Source of the DNA: Sipunculus nudus | Taxonomy: Eukaryota > Annelida > Sipuncula > Golfingiida > Sipunculidae | Length of the DNA stretch: 64,000 bases | Direction of reading: 5' to 3' | NCBI GenBank assembly: GCA_026874595.1 | Contig: CM049317.1 | Location: 13,322,882 to 13,386,881, forward strand | Shown here: piece after piece, positions 2,682 through 38,442 of the stretch | Layout of the letters: each line of letters opens with the position of its first letter | Numbering within the stretch: the stretch's first letter is position 1 | Translations under genes and position numbers: made by a program | Notes under the pieces: model-generated | What the model saw: the letters and a program-made list of their open reading frames with translations, nothing else | What the model was told of the DNA's origin: nothing | Databases searched by the model: none

Positions 2682-2995
2682 ATATTACGACATCAACATG
2701 AAGTACCAAACCATCATCTTCGCTGTCGTCATGACAACCTGCCTGCTCCTGCACTGCGCAGTCGCACTGCCATTGGAAGACCAGATTCCTGAAGATACCG
2801 GTCTATTCTTCGGCAAACGTACCTCTCATAACCCCAACTTCAACAACCTTCTGTTTGGGCGTCGAAGCTACAGAGATTTGGCCGAAAAAAATTTGGGGGC
2901 TGCACAAGATTTCTGCACTGTGGTCGTCCGGACGTGTACTAAGTATGGTCTCCTGGACGGCGGAAAGAATAGAAAGTAAAAATGCACCTGCAAAG
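2682..2995 (+). other. FFamide-type gene exon (spliced 5' end)
   Basis: A strong 3' splice site (T-rich tract at 2661-2679, then CAG ending at 2681) precedes the start codon by 16 bases. The coding exon therefore probably begins at 2682, with the rest of the 5' UTR on an upstream exon I could not find. A good donor context (CAAAG/GTAAAT, GT at 2996) follows the stop codon by 16 bases, so the exon may end at 2995 with an intron in the 3' UTR, or it may read through to the polyadenylation signal at 3086. Confidence 0.55.
2698..2979 (+). CDS. SIFamide/FFamide-type neuropeptide precursor
   Basis: A 93-residue secreted prohormone. Residues 1-23 are a signal peptide (MKYQ, then a hydrophobic core, likely cleaved after AVA). 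Two amidated peptides follow: LPLEDQIPEDTGLFF with Gly39 and Lys-Arg 40-41, and TSHNPNFNNLLF with Gly54 and Arg-Arg 55-56. The remaining 37 residues hold two cysteines (C73 and C80, C-X6-C). The second peptide matches the arthropod SIFamide core PPFNGSIF-GKR in the pattern P-x-F-N-x-x-[IL]-F-G-[KR]-R, and a two-cysteine tail is also typical of SIFamide precursors. I therefore assign it to the SIFamide/FFamide group, which acts through G-protein-coupled receptors. The start was chosen at the ATG after the splice acceptor; an upstream in-frame ATG at 2656 lies in the predicted intron. The coding exon is bracketed by inverted transposon-like ends. A diverged NPFF-type or orphan amidated-peptide family is the main alternative. 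Confidence 0.8.
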   Translation: MKYQTIIFAVVMTTCLLLHCAVALPLEDQIPEDTGLFFGKRTSHNPNFNNLLFGRRSYRDLAEKNLGAAQDFCTVVVRTCTKYGLLDGGKNRK

Positions 2996-3085: not shown

Positions 3086-3091
3086 AATAAA
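3086..3091 (+). promoter_or_regulatory. Polyadenylation signal AATAAA
   Basis: A canonical AATAAA lies 107 bases after the FFamide-type stop codon, just before the right-hand pogo-like end. It is the likely 3' end signal of this gene if the possible 3' UTR donor at 2996 is not used. Confidence 0.5.
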
Positions 3092-7073: not shown

Positions 7074-7436
7074 TGAGAGAGCGAGGGAGAGAGAAGGGAG
7101 GGGGAGGCAAATAAATTAAGAGAGAGATGCAGATAGACTGAGAGACAGATTGAGAGAGGCAGATAGACTGAGAGAGACAGATTGAGAGAGGCAGATAGAC
7201 TGAGAGACCAGAGTATAAGAAAGCCAGATAGACTGAGAGAGACAGAGTATGAGAGATGCATATAGACTGGGAGAGACAGAGTATGAGAGAGGCAGATACA
7301 CTGAGAGAGACAGAGTGAAAGAGGCAAATAGATAGACTGAAAGAAACAGAGTGAGAGAGGCAGATACACTGAGAGAGACAGAGTATGAGAGAGGCAGGCA
7401 AATAGATTGAGAGAGGGAGAAGCAGACAGACAGACT
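7074..7436. repeat. GA-rich minisatellite
   Basis: Imperfect tandem units built from GAGAGGCAGATAGACTGAGA and GACAGAGTATGAGAGA, roughly 30-40 bases each. The minus strand gives long Leu/Ser-rich reading frames that are a by-product of the repeat, not proteins. Confidence 0.85.
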
Positions 7437-27365: not shown

Positions 27366-28395
27366 TATAAGGTAGTAGCGGTAGCAGTATTAGTAAAAAT
27401 AGAAATTGTAGTAGTAGTTGTAGTAGTAGTAGAAGTGGTAGTAGAAATAGTAAAAGTAGTAGTTGAAGTAGTTGTAGTAGCAGTAGAATAAGAAGAAGCT
27501 GTAGAAGTAGTAGTAGTAGTGGAAGAAATAGTAGTGGAAGTAGTGGTTGTAGTAGTAGTAGTCGGGGGAAAAGTAGTAGTAGTAGTTTTAGTAGTAGTAG
27601 TAGTTTTAGTAGTAGTTTCAGTAGTAGTTTTAGTAGTAGTAGTAGTAGTAGTAGTTTTAGTAGTAGTTTTAGTAGTAGTAGTAGTAGTAGTTTTAGTAGT
27701 AGTTTTAGTAGTAGTAGTAGTAGTAGTAGTAGTTTTAGTAGTAGTAGTAGTTTTAGTAGTAGTAGTAGTCGGGGGAAAAGTAGTAGTAGTAGTTTTAGTA
27801 GTAGTAGTAGTTTAAGTAGTAGTTTTAGTAGTAGTTTTAGTAGTAGTAGTAGTTATAGTAGTAGTAGTAGTCGGGGGAAAAGTAGTAGTAGTAGTGGTAG
27901 TAGAAGTAGTAGTAGTAGTAGTAGTAGTTTTAGTAGTTTTAGTAGTGGTAGTAGTAGTAGTAGTAGTAGTAGTTTTAGTAGTTTTAGTAGTTTTAGTAGT
28001 AGTACTAGTAGTAGTAGTTCGAGTAGTAGAGGTGGAAGTAGTAGCAAAAGTAAAAGTAGTCGAAGTAGCAGGTGAGGTAATAGGAATAGTAGCAGCAGCA
28101 GCAGCAAAACAGTAGTAGTAGTGGTAGAAATATTAGAATTGATAGGCCTATCCAAAGTAGTAGCAGGCAGAGTGGTAGTGGTAGCAGAAGCTTTCAAAGT
28201 AGTAGTAACAGCAGAAGTAATAGTGAAGATAGTATCAGCAGCAGTAGAAGTGGTGCTGTTAGTTGCAGTAGACCGAACAGTAGAAGTGGTAGCAGTGGTA
28301 TTAACATAAATAAGTGGCACAAGAAGGATAAGTATTAGTGGTAGCAGTAGTAGTTGTTGAATTTTTAATAGCAGTAGTGTTATTATGAACAGTAG
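27366..28395 (+). repeat. ~1-kb (AGT)n trinucleotide array with variants
   Basis: A very long AGT array. It is purest at 27540-28020, where blocks of AGTAGTAGT alternate with AGTTTTAGT; it degrades to AGC/AGA/AGG variants on both flanks. A distinctive interruption, GTCGGGGGAAAAGTAGTAGT, occurs at 27561, 27768 and 27870, showing that larger blocks were themselves duplicated. The Val-rich plus frames and the Leu/Thr-rich 197-aa minus frame across it are artefacts. Confidence 0.95.
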
Positions 28396-31295: not shown

Positions 31296-31301
31296 TTTAT
31301 T
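31296..31301 (-). promoter_or_regulatory. Candidate luqin polyadenylation signal AATAAA
   Basis: The plus strand reads TTTATT here, giving AATAAA on the minus strand about 190 bases after the luqin stop codon. It is the first canonical signal I found downstream. Confidence 0.4.
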
Positions 31302-31489: not shown

Positions 31490-31532
31490 TCACTTCCTCT
31501 TGATGTTGGTGGTGGCGTCATTGTTGGTCCAT
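31490..31532 (-). CDS. Luqin coding exon 3 (last residues and stop)
   Basis: The acceptor CCGTTTCTGCAG is followed by the last base of an Arg codon, thirteen codons (WTNNDATTNIKRK) and TGA at 31492-31490. The phase matches the upstream donor exactly. Confidence 0.85.
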
Positions 31533-34500
31533 CTGCAGAAACGGAGAGAAAATATATTGAATTTAGAGGCATATTAAAGAGCAAAATTCTAAGCCAAACA
31601 TTATTTCATCATAAAATACCATATCAAAAGGTACCATATACAGGGGCTTTACTTTAATTTTGATAGCGCTCCAGTGACGAGTATTTACTATAATATTACT
31701 CTGAAAATTACGATTTTTAAAAGGGCCCTCCGACTCCCTAAAGTTATAGGGGCCTATCCCAATATCTAACGGGCATTAGATAAAGATAATTCATTGCTAC
31801 TTGTAATAATCTTGGTAAGTGTATGTCACTGAAACCCTAGACCAAGTCGTTGAAGACCTAGCGATCTTAAAGTGTATTGTCTCAATGAACAAAACACAAG
31901 GTCACGACATGCAAAGTTCAGCATCAAATAACTATAACATGGTTTTAACTGGACAACACTCTAGGCCGATTGGAAAGTAAAAACCTTTTCAGACTGAATA
32001 GATTACATCCAGATGTGCATTTTGGGATTCTTGAGAAAATAACAGATAAATAAAGAAAATCAATTTTTCTTTTTTTTTTTAATTTAGTTCGATGATATGT
32101 TTGTCAGCTAAGACGTAAGCAGGATAAACACCTTTCTATTAAAATCTGTTATTCTTTGTTTAAAACACGCACTCAAGGTTTCATTAGGTAAAATGATTTT
32201 TAGGCCCCATTTTTCCATATATCAGTGCCGGGGGGGGGGGGGGCATTTGTTATACTTTTTTATTTTATGTTTTTCTTATATTGATTTGCTAGGTAGGTAA
32301 ATGCATAACATACAAAAAGGTTTTATCGGATATTTTAAATTTGTTTTTAATGTCCGACCACCGGGAGCTCAAAATCGGTAAATTTCGTAAGAAAACAAAT
32401 ATAAAAATGTCATGTGCGGGGGTGCTGGCGCTTTCTGAGTAAACAATCCTTTTCGGCCTTACAGCATAAATTCAAATCCTTTGTCTTGTTTCAGCCTGGG
32501 GGATGGGGGGGGGGGGGGCAGATTAACATGTTCCCCTCGCTCTTTCAGATTTTTTGTCCCTTCACATTTTAGGGAAATTATTCACACAATTTCCAAATAA
32601 TCAGTTTACAGTTTCGTCATGTCTTCCTTAATAATATTCCAGGTATACATCTCAAAATGTGACCCTTAAGGATTTTATGTCAAGTGACTCATTGAATTGT
32701 CTTAAAAGTAAGCCTGTTTTTATTAATGTTTAAATCAAAACTTATTTTCTGAATAATAAAGTGCTGTTATCATTTTTGTATGATGAAAATACACATACAT
32801 ATACATATACGTAATTCATATATGGTGGGAGTGCGCAAATTGACGATATTCAGGGAGAGAGATTTTGTCTTGTTTGTCATAAAGGCGGGGGTTATTGTTC
32901 GGTGATATTGACCAGAGGAGCTAGAGGTTCTATTCTGTTAGTATTCCTATCAATTGCCCCCCCCCCCCCTTTCACATTTCCTCAGCAAACTATCCCCATG
33001 ATTTACTTGAGTTTATACATGTACATATCATACCTCCGTACCTGAAACATCTGTAGAGTCCTGGGCGTGACACGTGGACGCACATTCCGTCATCTCCGGG
33101 CAGCTGGAACAAGGGCGTGTCTTCGAAGCTTACGGGGTGGTTCTCGTGTCCAGCATCACCTGAAAAAATATAGAAGGCATTCAATGGAGAGCAGATGCTC
33201 CCGGAAAGGCTGAAATTACACTCTCAAATACGAGATGGTAAAATCATGATCATGGAAAAATTAGGAAAATACTTAGAAAAAGTAATCCTGTATAGCGATT
33301 CATTCTTCAGTGGATTTCGTTGTTGGTGCTTCCGTTGTCTACTCTACCAAGAAGCTGTTATTATTAAAGGCGTGGTGGTGAAGTAATAATAAGAGAGGGG
33401 ACATGTGACCTAAAAGAAATGATACATGGTTGATATATCCCTCTATAAAATAATTCTAAAATTTAAAAAGTCCTTTTCAAAAATACCGAAAATAGAAGAA
33501 TAACAATAAAAGTTTAAATGTTCAAACAACAAAACATTCTCCAGTTGAGTAGAGCGTTGATTACCTGATTTATTAATTACAATATTTTATATAATATATT
33601 GCAATTTTAGTTCACTCCCCGACGTCACCATCGCATCTTAAATCATACCTATTCATTTTTCATTTTTACTGTAAGTCGGTTATGATAATTTATTTGTGTA
33701 ATATTAGCCCAGTTAAATATAAGGGCCGGGAGCGGTGTTTCCACAGTATATAGAGTGGGAACACCAGTTCTGGTTCCTTATAGGGTCCTTTTATGGTTTT
33801 CCTAATTGCTGTCTCGCGTAACCAGGTATTACAAACGAATCACCTAGCTACGTAAAGCAAACATAAACGAGTCTAGGACTTTTCAAAGCCAGATTCATTT
33901 TGTTTAAAAAATATTTTAAGTGTGGTACTCGGTTCTGTCGAGACTGTAACATTAGCATGTGTACAATACTATAAAAATTAAATCATTTTAAGTACAAGGA
34001 TACAACACCTATGGCCTGAATGGATTTACATCAGGGATATCAATATTGTTAATCGCGCGATACCGAAAATTTCGACATGCGACCTGAGGCATCCGTACGG
34101 TGGATGATTTAGGACACAGAAAAAAAATATTTATCTCGAGATCTCGAGATAACATCTTATCTTAAGATAACATCTCGAGATCTCGACATAGAATTTCGCA
34201 AAAAAAATTAGGAAGCAAAAACAAAATTTTAGTAAGATAAAAAAAAAAATTTTAGGAAGCAAATAAAAATTTGTAGGAAGCAAAAAAAATTACCTAGATT
34301 ATGTTTATGATTACCTTCACTTCTTTAATATGTATATGCAAAGTTAGCCTGTATTAAAAAGGTTCTATAAATAAGACAGGTGAATAGCGACTTTAAGACC
34401 AAAGCAGAGCATTTTGCTGAAGAAAAATCATGATGAGAGATGATCGAAATATTTAAACCTTTTATTTATGAATATAAAACATTTATGAAGATAGGTTGAC

Positions 34501-37500
34501 TAAAGGTAATCTGAGCTAAAGTTATAGCTATAGTGGATCAAGACTTGGGCTTTAGGGGCTGAAGCACCCCCCCCCCCCCCACCCACCCCTCCGCCCAGCG
34601 TACCTTTCCGAAAACACAGTAATAATTTTTAGCATATTTTAATTTATGATGGTCTAATACATGTTCCGTAAATCAACACACCATTTCAATAAAAACAAAA
34701 GCTGAAAAAAATTGTACAAAAAGCGTGTTTCTATAAGAAGCCCATATTTGTTTGTATTCTAAAAAGTATAAGGTACCCACAATGCATGCATGCAGACCTA
34801 AACATTTCTATTTGAGTGATTTAACAGCCATTACTGCGAACCCGCCGTTCAGGTAGAATGTTTCAGTTTCTTTAGGCTTTGACATCTTCCTTACGGATAT
34901 GAATAATTACATATTGAATTTATATTGAACTTTTCTTCAACTCGCCTTATCTTAGGGGATGTACAAACTTGATTGATTTTAAATTAATTATATTGTTTTA
35001 CCGTTCAGTTAAATTAAGTGTACATGGTCTTTGTTTATAATTGCAATAGTTAGCACTCTTAACGTATACTGTCCCCATAACGTTGTTTTGCTTTATGTCA
35101 ATTTAGCTTCGAATACAAGTGTGACATTTTATCTGGAGATCTCGAAATATATATATTTTTTGCTTCCTAAATTTTTTTTCGTGTCCTAAAATTTTTTTTG
35201 TTTCTAAAAATTTTTTTTTTTTTGCTTCGTATTATTATCTTTCTGCTTCGTAAATTTTTTTTTTTTGCTTTCTTAAATTTTTTTTTTTTTTTGCTTCCTA
35301 TAATTTTTTTTTTTTCTTCCTAAAATTTTCTTTCTGCTTCCTAAAATTTTTTTTTTTACTTCCTAAAATTTTTTTTTGCAAAATCCTATGTCGATATCTC
35401 GAGATGTTATCTCGAGATCTCGAGATAAATTTTTTTTTTTTTTCTGTGTCCTAAATCAGCCACCGTACATCCGGGTTTTAGTGTGTACGCAAAAATCTAA
35501 GCCCACAGAGAAACTGGAGGAAAAAACCCTGACAAGGGGATGCAACACGAAAATAGTTTGAGGACAGCGTCCACTGGTGGATCTATCAGCGGAGAGATTT
35601 TGGTGGCAAGGGGGCAAGTATCGGCAGAGGTTAAAAGGGAATATCACTTTTTTATACCACGCCCGAATACATGACATTGCATTTAAACCACTGTTGTAAC
35701 CCCAGATGCTCACAACCGTGCAAAATCTGTCTTTATGGGTACTTATTTATATTATCAGGCTTTATTTCTTGAAAATGAACGTAAAATTAATAAACACTTA
35801 TTGAATATGGTTACCATTTATTTTTCATAATCTACGTCGGGACACACTGTTATAAGCGGAATCAATCATAAAACCTAAACAGAACAGGCTCTCACGGTGC
35901 AATCAATATGGTATTCATTACAACGAGGTCGGAATTGGGATTGGCTGGCGCAATCGAGTATGACAAGATGCGATTTATCTGCACTCGGTCAGGTTGCATA
36001 ACTAGGGTTTCCGGTCAAATTAACTGTGTCTTATTCCAAGATTCATTTCAATTTATCGATGACGGATATATATAACATATAGCTACATGGTAGGATTCAG
36101 CAATTACTTGGAACGGGTATGACCAAAATCAGATATGATTTTCGAGGAATTCAGGCCATCTCCTCGCACTAATATATAGCATTGCACGTTATCCTGACAG
36201 GCTTAATATATTCGTTAGTGAAACGGACACATTTGAACCCTGACGTCACGTCGACTATGACGCCTCACCTCATCAGACCAATCACAAAGCTGGAAAAAGG
36301 AGGCCCATCATGTACATTGCACTGCTTCATATCATGTCTGCCTAGGTTACCTGGTGCATTCCGGAAACTAAATATCTGACAAGTGCTTGAGTTTGAATGA
36401 AAATGAAAAAAAAAATCAATAATTCTAGAAAATAACACCCTCTTTTTAGCTTTACAATCCCAGAAAAGAGACACTTCCTTAACTTCAGAACAACAAGAAA
36501 TCTTTGCTCTTCTTTCGTGTATCCTTTATTTGACCGAAAATGATGTAGAATTTAGAAATTTATTAGTCAAGCGATTTTTAAGGAGAAATGTATTTGAATT
36601 TTAACCTCAGTAAATGTAGGAAAATTGTCAGATTTCCAATGCCTGGTGAAATCTGATATTTGTCATTGATATAAGGTATTTGTTTTTGAGTGAATAAGCC
36701 ATCGGATACGTGATGAATAATACATGGGAAGGATTAGGTTAATATCTAAAAGCAATGACAGTATGGCATACGAACATAACTTGATATGTATTTTGATTCG
36801 TTTTATTTATGGATGCTAATACCGTAAAAACGTCGCCTCAGGGTCGTGCTTAATGTATTAGGATAGGGGCACCTGCCTGGGGGCTCCAAGGGTATAGAGT
36901 TACCAATGCACGCAAATGACCATTAAATTTTGAAATGTGGAATTACAAAAGAATCCCTAAACGGGCAATTCGTCACTTATAGGTTAGAATGGTAAAAATA
37001 TTTTTCGCATTAGCTATTTATACATAAAGCGCTACCCGGCAAGAGAAGTTTCTCCCGAGTTCTATAGCCATAGCTGCTGTCTTGTTGTTCCCTGCGCTAA
37101 GCTGCGCTGTCCGACAAAAAAATCGTTAATTTTAAAATAGAGACATTCCAATCACCGATAAAATTGCAATACCTCGGTCAAAAAGTGTAGAATGAACCCA
37201 AGAATATGGACCGAAAAATGAAAGCAAACAAGGTTTTTGGAGCACCCCACAATAGGGAGGCTTGTTTTCCTGAGAATGCAGATGTATAGTTGTTAATGTA
37301 ATTTAACATTAGAAACATTTGGATTATAGACAACTGAATTATTCTGGGCAGGAGGTAAGGTCGGGTCACGCATTAGTTGGTTTATGTTGCACTAAATAAC
37401 AATATCCCTAAACGTTTTTCGGATTGCTCATCTACGAAACTTCTTTCATCAATAAATTTACGCATTGTCCTTGTTTCAGAGGACTGGGTAGGAGGGCGAC

Positions 37501-38426
37501 ATGTCCCGCTCATTTTTTTTTTTTTTTGTTTTCGAGTAGGGAACAAGGTAAAGGGGGGTTATTTAATCAAACAATGTTGAAAGAAACATCAATTATTTTC
37601 CTATAAAACCAAAACGTACATTCCTAATATACAGTGGGAGGGAAGAACATTATTACATTCTGGGAGGACCCTTTCGTTCTTTCTGTAATGAGATGGTTGT
37701 TGTCCATTGGGATTTTAAGTATGGAGTCCTTATTACGCGGTCTGCCTGCATGGGTGGATCTTCAAGGCCCATGAATTTAAGATGAAATAATGAATATATC
37801 AAACAAAATGTTAACAAGATGTAAGTAATCGATTGGGGGCGAAAACCTAAAACCTGAAGCCCAACACACCTCCCCTGTACCCCAAACCAAGCCAATTCCT
37901 AAGCGATAATGGGGAAACATCCATGGCGTGTACGACCTTGAGAAAAAGACAAGGCCAAAAATAAACATTAGGAGCAAACATTTCATCTAGAAGTAATATC
38001 GTGCTCAAAATTCCGACATACTGGAGATTTAACGCAAAAAAAAAAATGGCGGAAGAAAGAAAACAAAGTGAGATCGATTGTTTTGCACACGGGGGTGGGG
38101 GACCGAAGTAAGTCCATATACATAAATAATTTACCGAAATATGAGTAAAGACATAAATTCATTTACCCATAAAAGCCTCTCTTTTCATTTTAAAAGATAA
38201 TGACAAATTTAAATGCGAATTTCAAATTAAAACAAAAATAATGTAAATATAATAAGAAGTTTAGAATTTAGAAAGACAAACCTGCTGCGAGTGTGTGCAC
38301 TGCATCCTTGACCCCCATACGTTTGCCAAATCGTCCCTGTGGGCGCCAGTACCCGAATGCAACGCCATCCAGTGACAAGGCGAACACCAAAATCACAGCC
38401 AGAACACAGTTGCTTCCCGTTGCCAT
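31490..38426 (-). CDS. Luqin (RYamide/luqin family) neuropeptide precursor, three coding exons
   Basis: A 101-residue prohormone joined from 38426-38282, 33159-33042 and 31532-31490 on the minus strand. Residues 1-23 are a signal peptide (MATGSNCVLAVILVFAL, likely cut after GVA). Next comes FGYWRPQGRF, then Gly34, Lys-Arg 35-36, so an amidated FGYWRPQGRF-amide; WRPQGRF-amide is the diagnostic protostome luqin ending. The long C-terminal peptide carries the family's conserved cysteine pair (CVHVSRPGLYRC, C-X10-C) and ends NIKRK-stop. Junctions are GCAGCAG/GTTTG..TTTTTTCAG/GTGATG (phase 1) and TTTCAG/GTACGG..TTTCTGCAG/ATGGAC (phase 2), and all keep the frame. Luqin acts as a secreted neuronal peptide through a luqin/RYamide receptor. 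A gene symbol is not given because nomenclature differs between taxa. Confidence 0.94.
32190..32475 (+). repeat. Dispersed repeat family R, copy 2 (luqin intron)
   Basis: Matches 22655-22995 in order: TTTTTCCATATATCAGTGC with a long G run (32229-32242), TGTCCGACCACC, GAGCTCAAAATCGGTAAATTT, ATAAAAATGTCA, TGCGGGGGTG and CGGCCTTACAGCATAAA. It sits in the intron between luqin coding exons 2 and 3. Further G and C runs follow at 32506-32518 and 32957-32968. Confidence 0.5.
33042..33159 (-). CDS. Luqin coding exon 2 (C-X10-C domain)
   Basis: 118 bases with a clear acceptor TATTTTTTCAG and donor CAG/GTACGG. It encodes an acidic spacer (HENHPVSFEDTPLF) and the cysteine pair. If the donor were not used, translation would continue 16 more codons past CF (RYGGMICTCINSSKSWG) and stop within the intron. 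Confidence 0.92.
33160..34094 (-). other. Luqin intron 2, distal part: nothing recognised
   Basis: AT-rich intronic DNA; a 63-codon plus frame at 33195-33386 has no motif. Confidence 0.5.
34095..35468. mobile_element. Foldback-type transposable element with 4-bp target duplication
   Basis: The termini are perfect inverted GTACGGTGG...CCACCGTAC and continue as long inverted arms: (A/C)TGATTTAGGACACAG, an A run, then a 22-bp perfect palindrome of CTCGAGATCTCGAG type (34131-34152 and 35407-35428). Degenerate tandem units TAGGAAGCAAAAAAAATTT follow. Arms are about 200 (left) and 330 (right) bases around an AT-rich loop of about 850 bases with no ORF. ATCC flanks both ends (34091-34094 and 35469-35472), consistent with a 4-bp target duplication. 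It lies in the luqin intron between coding exons 1 and 2. Confidence 0.85.
35473..38281 (-). other. Luqin intron 2, proximal part
   Basis: No exon recognised. It contains a perfect TGACGTCA at 36241-36248 and poly-T/A tracts; other short frames have no support. A repeat-like CCCACAGAGAAACTGGAGGA lies just outside the foldback element at about 35500. Confidence 0.5.
38282..38426 (-). CDS. Luqin coding exon 1 (signal peptide and amidated peptide)
   Basis: Holds residues 1-48 and one base of codon 49, including the whole mature luqin and its GKR site. The exon starts upstream in the 5' UTR at an acceptor (TTCGTTACAG) at 38442, 16 bases before the ATG at 38426. The donor GT is at 38281-38280. 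A longer minus-strand frame (38484-38227) overlaps in another frame and is a shadow. Confidence 0.93.
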
Positions 38427-38442
38427 AGCGACACTTGTGCTC

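What the first reader, a model, noticed from the sequence alone, without database searches (positions are those of the whole stretch)
31490..38426. Spliced luqin gene hidden from ORF-based annotation
Three short coding exons spread over 6.9 kb join in frame to a 101-residue precursor with a signal peptide, FGYWRPQGRF-amide and a C-X10-C tail. No single open frame shows it; the exon carrying the hormone lies in a different frame from the longest ORF there. WRPQGRF-amide and the cysteine pair are established luqin hallmarks. The FGY extension is less usual than the APQ-type start I recall from molluscs.
Basis: partly seen in the sequence, partly recalled or inferred. Interest (0 to 1): 0.8.

Follow-up and report, generated by a model that had tools for sequence, protein, structure and literature searches.

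The report
Luqin neuropeptide gene, peanut worm
The window holds an ordinary gene for the neuropeptide hormone luqin in a marine peanut worm, with a second known kind of neuropeptide gene nearby; it extends a known family to one more animal.

Summary
Three minus-strand exons (38426-38282, 33159-33042, 31532-31490) join in frame with GT/AG ends to a 101-residue precursor: signal peptide, FGYWRPQGRF-GKR, and a C-X10-C tail, CVHVSRPGLYRC, like the published oyster luqin tail VCVESNVPGLFKCY. The WRPQGRFGK code occurs once in the 1.43 Gb genome. It is a luqin gene. Chromosome lengths (against the paper) place the window on chromosome 12 of Sipunculus nudus, a sipunculan annelid, not a mollusc; annelid luqins vary before WRPQGRF, so FGY is unremarkable. 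'Hidden' is overstated: the hormone lies in a plain 52-codon ATG frame. Weakest part is exon 3: a second donor 8 bases on gives another tail (106 aa), and exon-2 skipping would give a 64-aa cysteine-less form like one reported in Aplysia. Not in the finding: a complete SIFamide/FFamide-type precursor at 2698-2979, one place in the genome search, 28.5 kb from luqin and convergent with it. Verdict: new member of a well-known family, modest interest; the luqin-SIFamide linkage is the one open lead.

The parts
38282..38426 (-). Luqin coding exon 1: signal peptide, FGYWRPQGRF, GKR
   Evidence: ATG at 38426, donor CAG|GTTTGT after 38282; GC 0.559
38358..38426 (-). Predicted signal peptide, 23 residues (MATGSNCVLAVILVFALSLDGVA)
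   Evidence: Hydrophobic core and -3/-1 rule by inspection; the crude scan found a signal-like start but placed the cut earlier, after S18. Scallop luqin also follows a 23-residue signal peptide. A cut after G25 also fits the rule. No dedicated predictor was run.
38319..38357 (-). Hormone FGYWRPQGRF followed by GKR (amidation and dibasic cleavage)
33042..33159 (-). Luqin coding exon 2: C-X10-C tail
   Evidence: its acceptor is the only one in the stretch of intron 1 scanned with at least 14 of 17 pyrimidines and no nearby AG; second whole-genome hit of the precursor
33047..33082 (-). CVHVSRPGLYRC, conserved luqin tail motif
   Evidence: compare oyster VCVESNVPGLFKCY
33034..33159 (-). Alternative exon 2 ending 8 nt later at donor GAG|GTATGA (isoform B, 106 aa)
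   Evidence: generic donor score 3.23 against 4.44 for the first donor
31490..31532 (-). Luqin coding exon 3, stop TGA; frame uncertain
   Evidence: acceptor 15/17 pyrimidines; of 5 candidates with 13 or more between 33000 and 29000 only a poly-C run at 32495 scores higher (16/17)
31296..31301 (-). AATAAA poly(A) signal candidate, 188 nt after the stop
38427..38441 (-). Possible 5' UTR after a splice acceptor (TTTTTCGTTACAG) 15 nt before the ATG
   Evidence: 11/17 pyrimidines, weak
2698..2979 (+). SIFamide/FFamide-type precursor, 93 aa on one coding exon, linked gene
   Evidence: acceptor TCTCTATTTCAG 16 nt before the ATG, AATAAA at 3086
2767..2820 (+). First amidated peptide LPLEDQIPEDTGLFF-GKR (N-terminal end by inspection)
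2821..2865 (+). Second amidated peptide TSHNPNFNNLLF-GRR
   Evidence: compare scallop GMNPNMNSLFF and oyster GMNPNMNSLFFamide

Best explanation
This is the luqin gene of the sipunculan annelid Sipunculus nudus, the only luqin-like locus that the genome searches found. The precursor enters the secretory pathway by its signal peptide; the signal peptide is removed just before FGYWRPQGRF; prohormone convertase cuts at KR, a carboxypeptidase trims it, and the exposed glycine is turned into a C-terminal amide, giving FGYWRPQGRF-NH2 (or a shorter YWRPQGRF-NH2 if the signal peptide is cut after G25). The cysteine tail is released as a companion peptide or helps sorting. The amidated peptide then acts on a luqin/RYamide-type G-protein-coupled receptor. 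Shown here: sequence, motifs, one locus, GT/AG introns. Inferred: processing, expression, receptor, function; the last coding exon and its frame.
For: Signal peptide, hormone and GKR contiguous in one exon. WRPQGRF-amide is the molluscan and annelid luqin signature. Tail CVHVSRPGLYRC has the C-X10-C spacing typical of the family and shares C-V-x4-PGL-[FY]-[KR]-C with oyster luqin. Both family motifs occur in 0 of 100 shuffles. One locus in the genome. Exon 2 has the only strong acceptor in intron 1. GC-rich exons 1 and 2 and an AATAAA.
Against: No transcript or peptide data. The intron-1 donor GTTTGT is weak by a generic, recalled matrix (1.53; 95.7th percentile of 3610 GT sites on the strand). 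Exon 3 shows no GC signal of its own and can be read in two frames. No Pfam family matched above its cut-off; the only match was prolactin-releasing peptide at E 0.11, 12.6 bits against 27. The receptor was not sought.
Confidence: 0.96

Rival explanations
1. Luqin gene as above, but the main product ends differently: the donor after 33034 joins exon 3 in the other frame (106 aa, tail ...CFRYGDGPTMTPPPTSRGSEL), or exon 2 is the last exon by read-through (tail ...CFRYGGMICTCINSSKSWG).
For: Both open frames exist. Isoform B and the exon-2-skipping form read exon 3 in the same, proline-containing frame; Aplysia luqin has a proline-rich mature peptide, though where its prolines lie was not seen.
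Against: The first donor scores higher (4.44 against 3.23, recalled generic matrix). No transcripts.
Confidence: 0.3
2. The gene makes two forms by exon skipping: the full precursor, and a 64-aa form (exon 1 joined to exon 3) that keeps the hormone but loses both cysteines, as reported for an Aplysia kidney transcript.
For: Exon 2 is 118 nt (not a multiple of 3) and carries both cysteines; skipping leaves a 64-aa frame. Review text on Aplysia exon skipping.
Against: Any exon of such length would do this; nothing shows that the form is used in this animal.
Confidence: 0.25
3. Pseudogene or chance assembly of motifs.
For: Exon 3 has no independent support. The signal-peptide-plus-amidation scan alone is not very specific: 51 of 100 shuffles of the 264 kb gave at least one hit.
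Against: Intact signal peptide, hormone, cleavage site, tail and splice sites; family motifs in 0 of 100 shuffles; only luqin-like locus found in the genome.
Confidence: 0.02

Closest known systems
Mollusc luqins (Aplysia APSWRPQGRFa, Lymnaea TPHWRPQGRFa, scallop and Lottia APQWRPQGRFa)
   Same: WRPQGRF-amide, a single peptide following the signal peptide, C-X10-C tail; hormone also 10 residues in these
   Different: FGY in place of APS, APQ or TPH; phylum Annelida. Some snails have two luqin copies
Annelid luqins (Capitella QFAWRPQGRFa, Platynereis WRPQGRFa)
   Same: Same core and same phylum
   Different: N-terminal residues differ; FGYWRPQGRF is in 0 papers of the library searched
Oyster luqin tail VCVESNVPGLFKCY
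   Same: C-V-x4-PGL-[FY]-[KR]-C then an aromatic residue
   Different: HVSR in place of ESNV in the variable part
Ecdysozoan RYamides and ambulacrarian RWamides
   Same: Same family, two-cysteine tail typical
   Different: C-terminal RY or RW instead of RF
SIFamide/FFamide precursors of bivalves (for the linked gene at 2698-2979)
   Same: NPN-x-N-x-L-[FL]-F: scallop GMNPNMNSLFF, oyster GMNPNMNSLFFamide
   Different: This one has TSHNPNFNNLLFamide and a first peptide ending TGLFFamide

Membership tests
Luqin / RYamide | Peptide with WRPQGRF (lophotrochozoan form) followed by an amidation glycine and dibasic site | tested here: met
   FGYWRPQGRF-GKR
Luqin / RYamide | Hormone directly after a signal peptide, N-terminal in the precursor | tested here: met
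   Residues 24-33 after a predicted 23-residue signal peptide; by inspection and a crude scan (cut placed earlier there); no dedicated predictor
Luqin / RYamide | Two cysteines ten residues apart near the C-terminus | tested here: met
   CVHVSRPGLYRC at 33082-33047; family feature
Luqin / RYamide | Hormone and cysteine tail on one spliced transcript | tested here: inconclusive
   GT/AG and frame fit, single strong acceptor in intron 1; no transcripts to prove it
Luqin / RYamide | Activates a luqin-type receptor | not testable with these tools
   No receptor search or assay was made
SIFamide / FFamide (linked gene) | Amidated peptide(s) ending in FF or LF with an NPN-like body | tested here: met
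   TSHNPNFNNLLF-GRR and ...TGLFF-GKR; compared by eye with peptides
SIFamide / FFamide (linked gene) | Acts on a SIFamide-type receptor | not tested
   No receptor search made

The most novel reading that the evidence does not exclude
Luqin and SIFamide/FFamide genes lie together because they are relics of one ancient cluster: a tandem duplication of an RFamide-type precursor that gave two families whose receptors both belong to the RFamide-type rhodopsin-beta group. Both precursors have a signal peptide, amidated peptide(s), then a two-cysteine tail, and both have an acceptor 15-16 nt before the ATG. If the linkage recurs in other annelids, molluscs or nemerteans, gene order would give independent evidence on the origin of neuropeptide families, which sequence similarity does not give here (BLASTP of the two precursors aligns 8 residues, E 0.18).
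Probability: 0.07. Interest if true: 0.6.

Novelty: new member of a known kind. Interest (0 to 1): 0.22.

Why it matters
It places luqin in a sipunculan with its likely gene anatomy and corrects a mollusc-centred reading. The wider value lies in the linked SIFamide-type gene: gene order is a character by which the old question of how RFamide-type neuropeptide families arose could be tested in any chromosome-level annelid or mollusc genome.

Tried and rejected
Pfam on the luqin and FFamide precursors and on part of one low-complexity window ORF: nothing above a cut-off; PrRP at E 0.11 rejected. Pfam on 10 further ORFs (3 of the window, 7 of the flanks): one hit above its cut-off, zf-RVT in L023; Herpes_teg_N in L020 is just under its cut-off (24.2 against 25) and sits among frames that look like a Helitron, so it was not taken to mean a virus. 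Only these ORFs were scanned, so other genes in the window are not excluded. Rfam at gathering thresholds: 0 hits in the window. ARAGORN: no tRNA.

The scan for signal peptide plus G[KR][KR] over 264 kb gave two hits, the two precursors, but it is only moderately specific: over 100 shuffles the mean was 0.65, 51 had at least one and 12 had two or more. I therefore rest on family motifs, not on that scan. A mis-spaced tail pattern (six instead of five residues before PGL) found 0 in the real sequence; corrected it found 1.

C-X10-C and C-X6-C alone were rejected as evidence (595 and 581 in 264 kb, shuffle means 539 and 540). [FL]FG[KR][KR] alone is also at chance (3 against a mean of 2.12). Strong minus-strand acceptors (14 of 17 pyrimidines or more) occur at 0.41 per kb in the window, so about two would be expected by chance in intron 1; only the exon-2 one was found.

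Homology of the two precursors: none detected.

Linkage in the literature: one search found 0 papers with FFamide, SIFamide and luqin together; one search listed 19 of 19 and one search listed 20 of 112 papers, and none of the titles or abstract openings speaks of luqin-SIFamide linkage; passages of a few of them were read. The library is open-licence only and no supplements were searched. FGYWRPQGRF or YWRPQGRF: 0 papers. A paper on the echiuran Urechis held none of four family names.
Full report
What is there. The minus strand of 38426-31490 encodes, over three exons, MATGSNCVLAVILVFALSLDGVA-FGYWRPQGRF-GKR-MGVKDAVHTLAAGDAGHENHPVSFEDTPLFQLPGDDGM-CVHVSRPGLYRC-FRWTNNDATTNIKRK. Exon lengths are 145, 118 and 43 nt; the introns (5122 and 1509 nt) have GT/AG ends; the sum is in frame. 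The longest open frame over the hormone exon is indeed in another frame (96 aa), while the hormone frame is open for 67 codons, 52 from its ATG.

More than chance. WRPQGRFG[KR] occurs once in the window plus 100 kb on each side (264 kb, six frames) and in 0 of 100 local first-order Markov shuffles; as a degenerate DNA pattern it occurs once in the 1.43 Gb genome, with 0 for the reversed pattern. The tail pattern C-X5-PGL[FY][KR]C occurs once and in 0 of 100 shuffles. By contrast C-X10-C alone is at chance (595; shuffle mean 539). The precursor hits the genome twice at E up to 0.001, at exons 1 and 2 of this locus (10 of 10 first-look candidates scored). Exons 1 and 2 stand out in GC content.

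Which animal. G000 has 1,426,538,692 bases in 153 contigs; the window is C12:13322882-13386881. The 17 large contigs run from 110.9 to 61.1 Mb (for 16 of them, for C12). Their lengths equal those given for Chr01-Chr17 of the Sipunculus nudus assembly in 14 of 17 cases, Chr12 included at 78,550,287; the other three differ by under 10 kb (PMC10212961, abstract and first part of Methods read). S. nudus is classed in Annelida, Sipuncula. Platynereis is reported to have both luqin and SIFamide (PMC3890597, passages).

Family. Luqin-type precursors typically have a signal peptide, one or more amidated peptides near the N-terminus and two cysteines ten residues apart near the C-terminus (PMC5940834, passages). 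All three are met. Oyster luqin is reported as APQWRPQGRFamide with VCVESNVPGLFKCY (PMC4200219, passages); the S. nudus tail MCVHVSRPGLYRCF matches it at C, V, P, G, L and C, with F/Y, K/R and Y/F exchanges. Scallop luqin also follows a 23-residue signal peptide (PMC5996578, passages). A table of mollusc luqins shows that the first residues vary (PMC4208409, passages).

What is less sure. Exon 3 is short and without GC signal. Its acceptor (15 of 17 pyrimidines) is second only to a poly-C run among 5 candidates between 33000 and 29000, but a second donor 8 nt after the first, GAG|GTATGA, leads to the other frame and a tail CFRYGDGPTMTPPPTSRGSEL. By a generic donor matrix from recall the first donor scores 4.44 and the second 3.23; the intron-1 donor only 1.53. 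The acceptor of exon 2 is the only one in the stretch of intron 1 scanned with at least 14 of 17 pyrimidines and no nearby AG, where about two would be expected from the window's rate. Exon 2 is 118 nt and holds both cysteines, so skipping it shifts the frame and gives a 64-aa precursor with the hormone but no cysteines. The review reports just such a form, made by exon skipping and specific to the kidney, for Aplysia. That is a prediction here, not a finding. The signal peptidase site is also open: cuts after A23 or G25 both fit the -3/-1 rule (inspection), and the crude scan put it after S18.

The second gene. At 2698-2979 on the plus strand a 93-residue precursor, MKYQTIIFAVVMTTCLLLHCAVA-LPLEDQIPEDTGLFF-GKR-TSHNPNFNNLLF-GRR-SYRDLAEKNLGAAQDF-CTVVVRTC-TKYGLLDGGKNRK, lies on one coding exon with an acceptor 16 nt before the ATG and AATAAA at 3086. 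Its second peptide resembles bivalve FFamide/SIF-like peptides, GMNPNMNSLFF in scallop and GMNPNMNSLFFamide in oyster. The genome search gave one place, at E up to 1. The two genes point towards each other, stop codons 28.5 kb apart. If a genome of this size held about 100 neuropeptide genes at random (my assumption), one of them would fall within 36 kb of luqin about 0.5% of the time; this is arithmetic after the fact, and clustering of genes would raise it. The two precursors share a plan but no detectable sequence similarity, and their coding exon structures differ. Receptors for luqin and for SIFamide/NPFF both sit in a large RFamide-type group, whose common ancestor is speculated to have used an RFamide ligand (PMC4062910, passages). 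The linkage is therefore worth a check elsewhere. None was made here: the genome tool gives no relatives of this animal.

Function. From work on other species told in the review, luqins excite heart and other muscle, are linked to reproduction and water balance in snails, and act through a receptor close to tachykinin receptors; a Platynereis receptor responds to WRPQGRF-amide, but no physiology was known for annelids at its date. The S. nudus peptide most likely acts in the same kind of way through an orthologous receptor; that receptor was not sought here.

Verdict.

Noticed in passing
window 2698-2979 (+): Complete SIFamide/FFamide-type neuropeptide precursor (two amidated peptides, C-X6-C tail), one place in the genome search, 28.5 kb from the luqin gene and convergent with it.
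   Followed up: partly
window 38427-38441 and 2682-2697: Both neuropeptide genes have a splice acceptor 15-16 nt before the ATG, which suggests a non-coding first exon in each.
   Followed up: partly
window 27372-28044: Long imperfect trinucleotide-type array (consensus GTA, score 590) with long open frames on both strands that are likely repeat artefacts.
   Followed up: no
window 7122-7397: Tandem array of a 34-bp unit, 8.3 copies, 83% matches.
   Followed up: no
L020:2789-7981 (+), about 63-68 kb downstream of the window: Run of long open frames that by recall look like a Helitron transposon; the two tested gave only sub-threshold Pfam hits. The S. nudus paper reports 16.83% of the genome as Helitron.
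   Followed up: partly
L023:315-1259 (+): Reverse-transcriptase zinc-binding domain (zf-RVT, E 4.2e-11), a likely LINE-type relic.
   Followed up: no
L018:9838 to L019:740 (+): 301-aa open frame of an apparent multi-pass membrane protein with GEISRLYDTEITPVGWTFAIWAVIYTWQ; no Pfam family above cut-off for the 246-aa part tested.
   Followed up: partly
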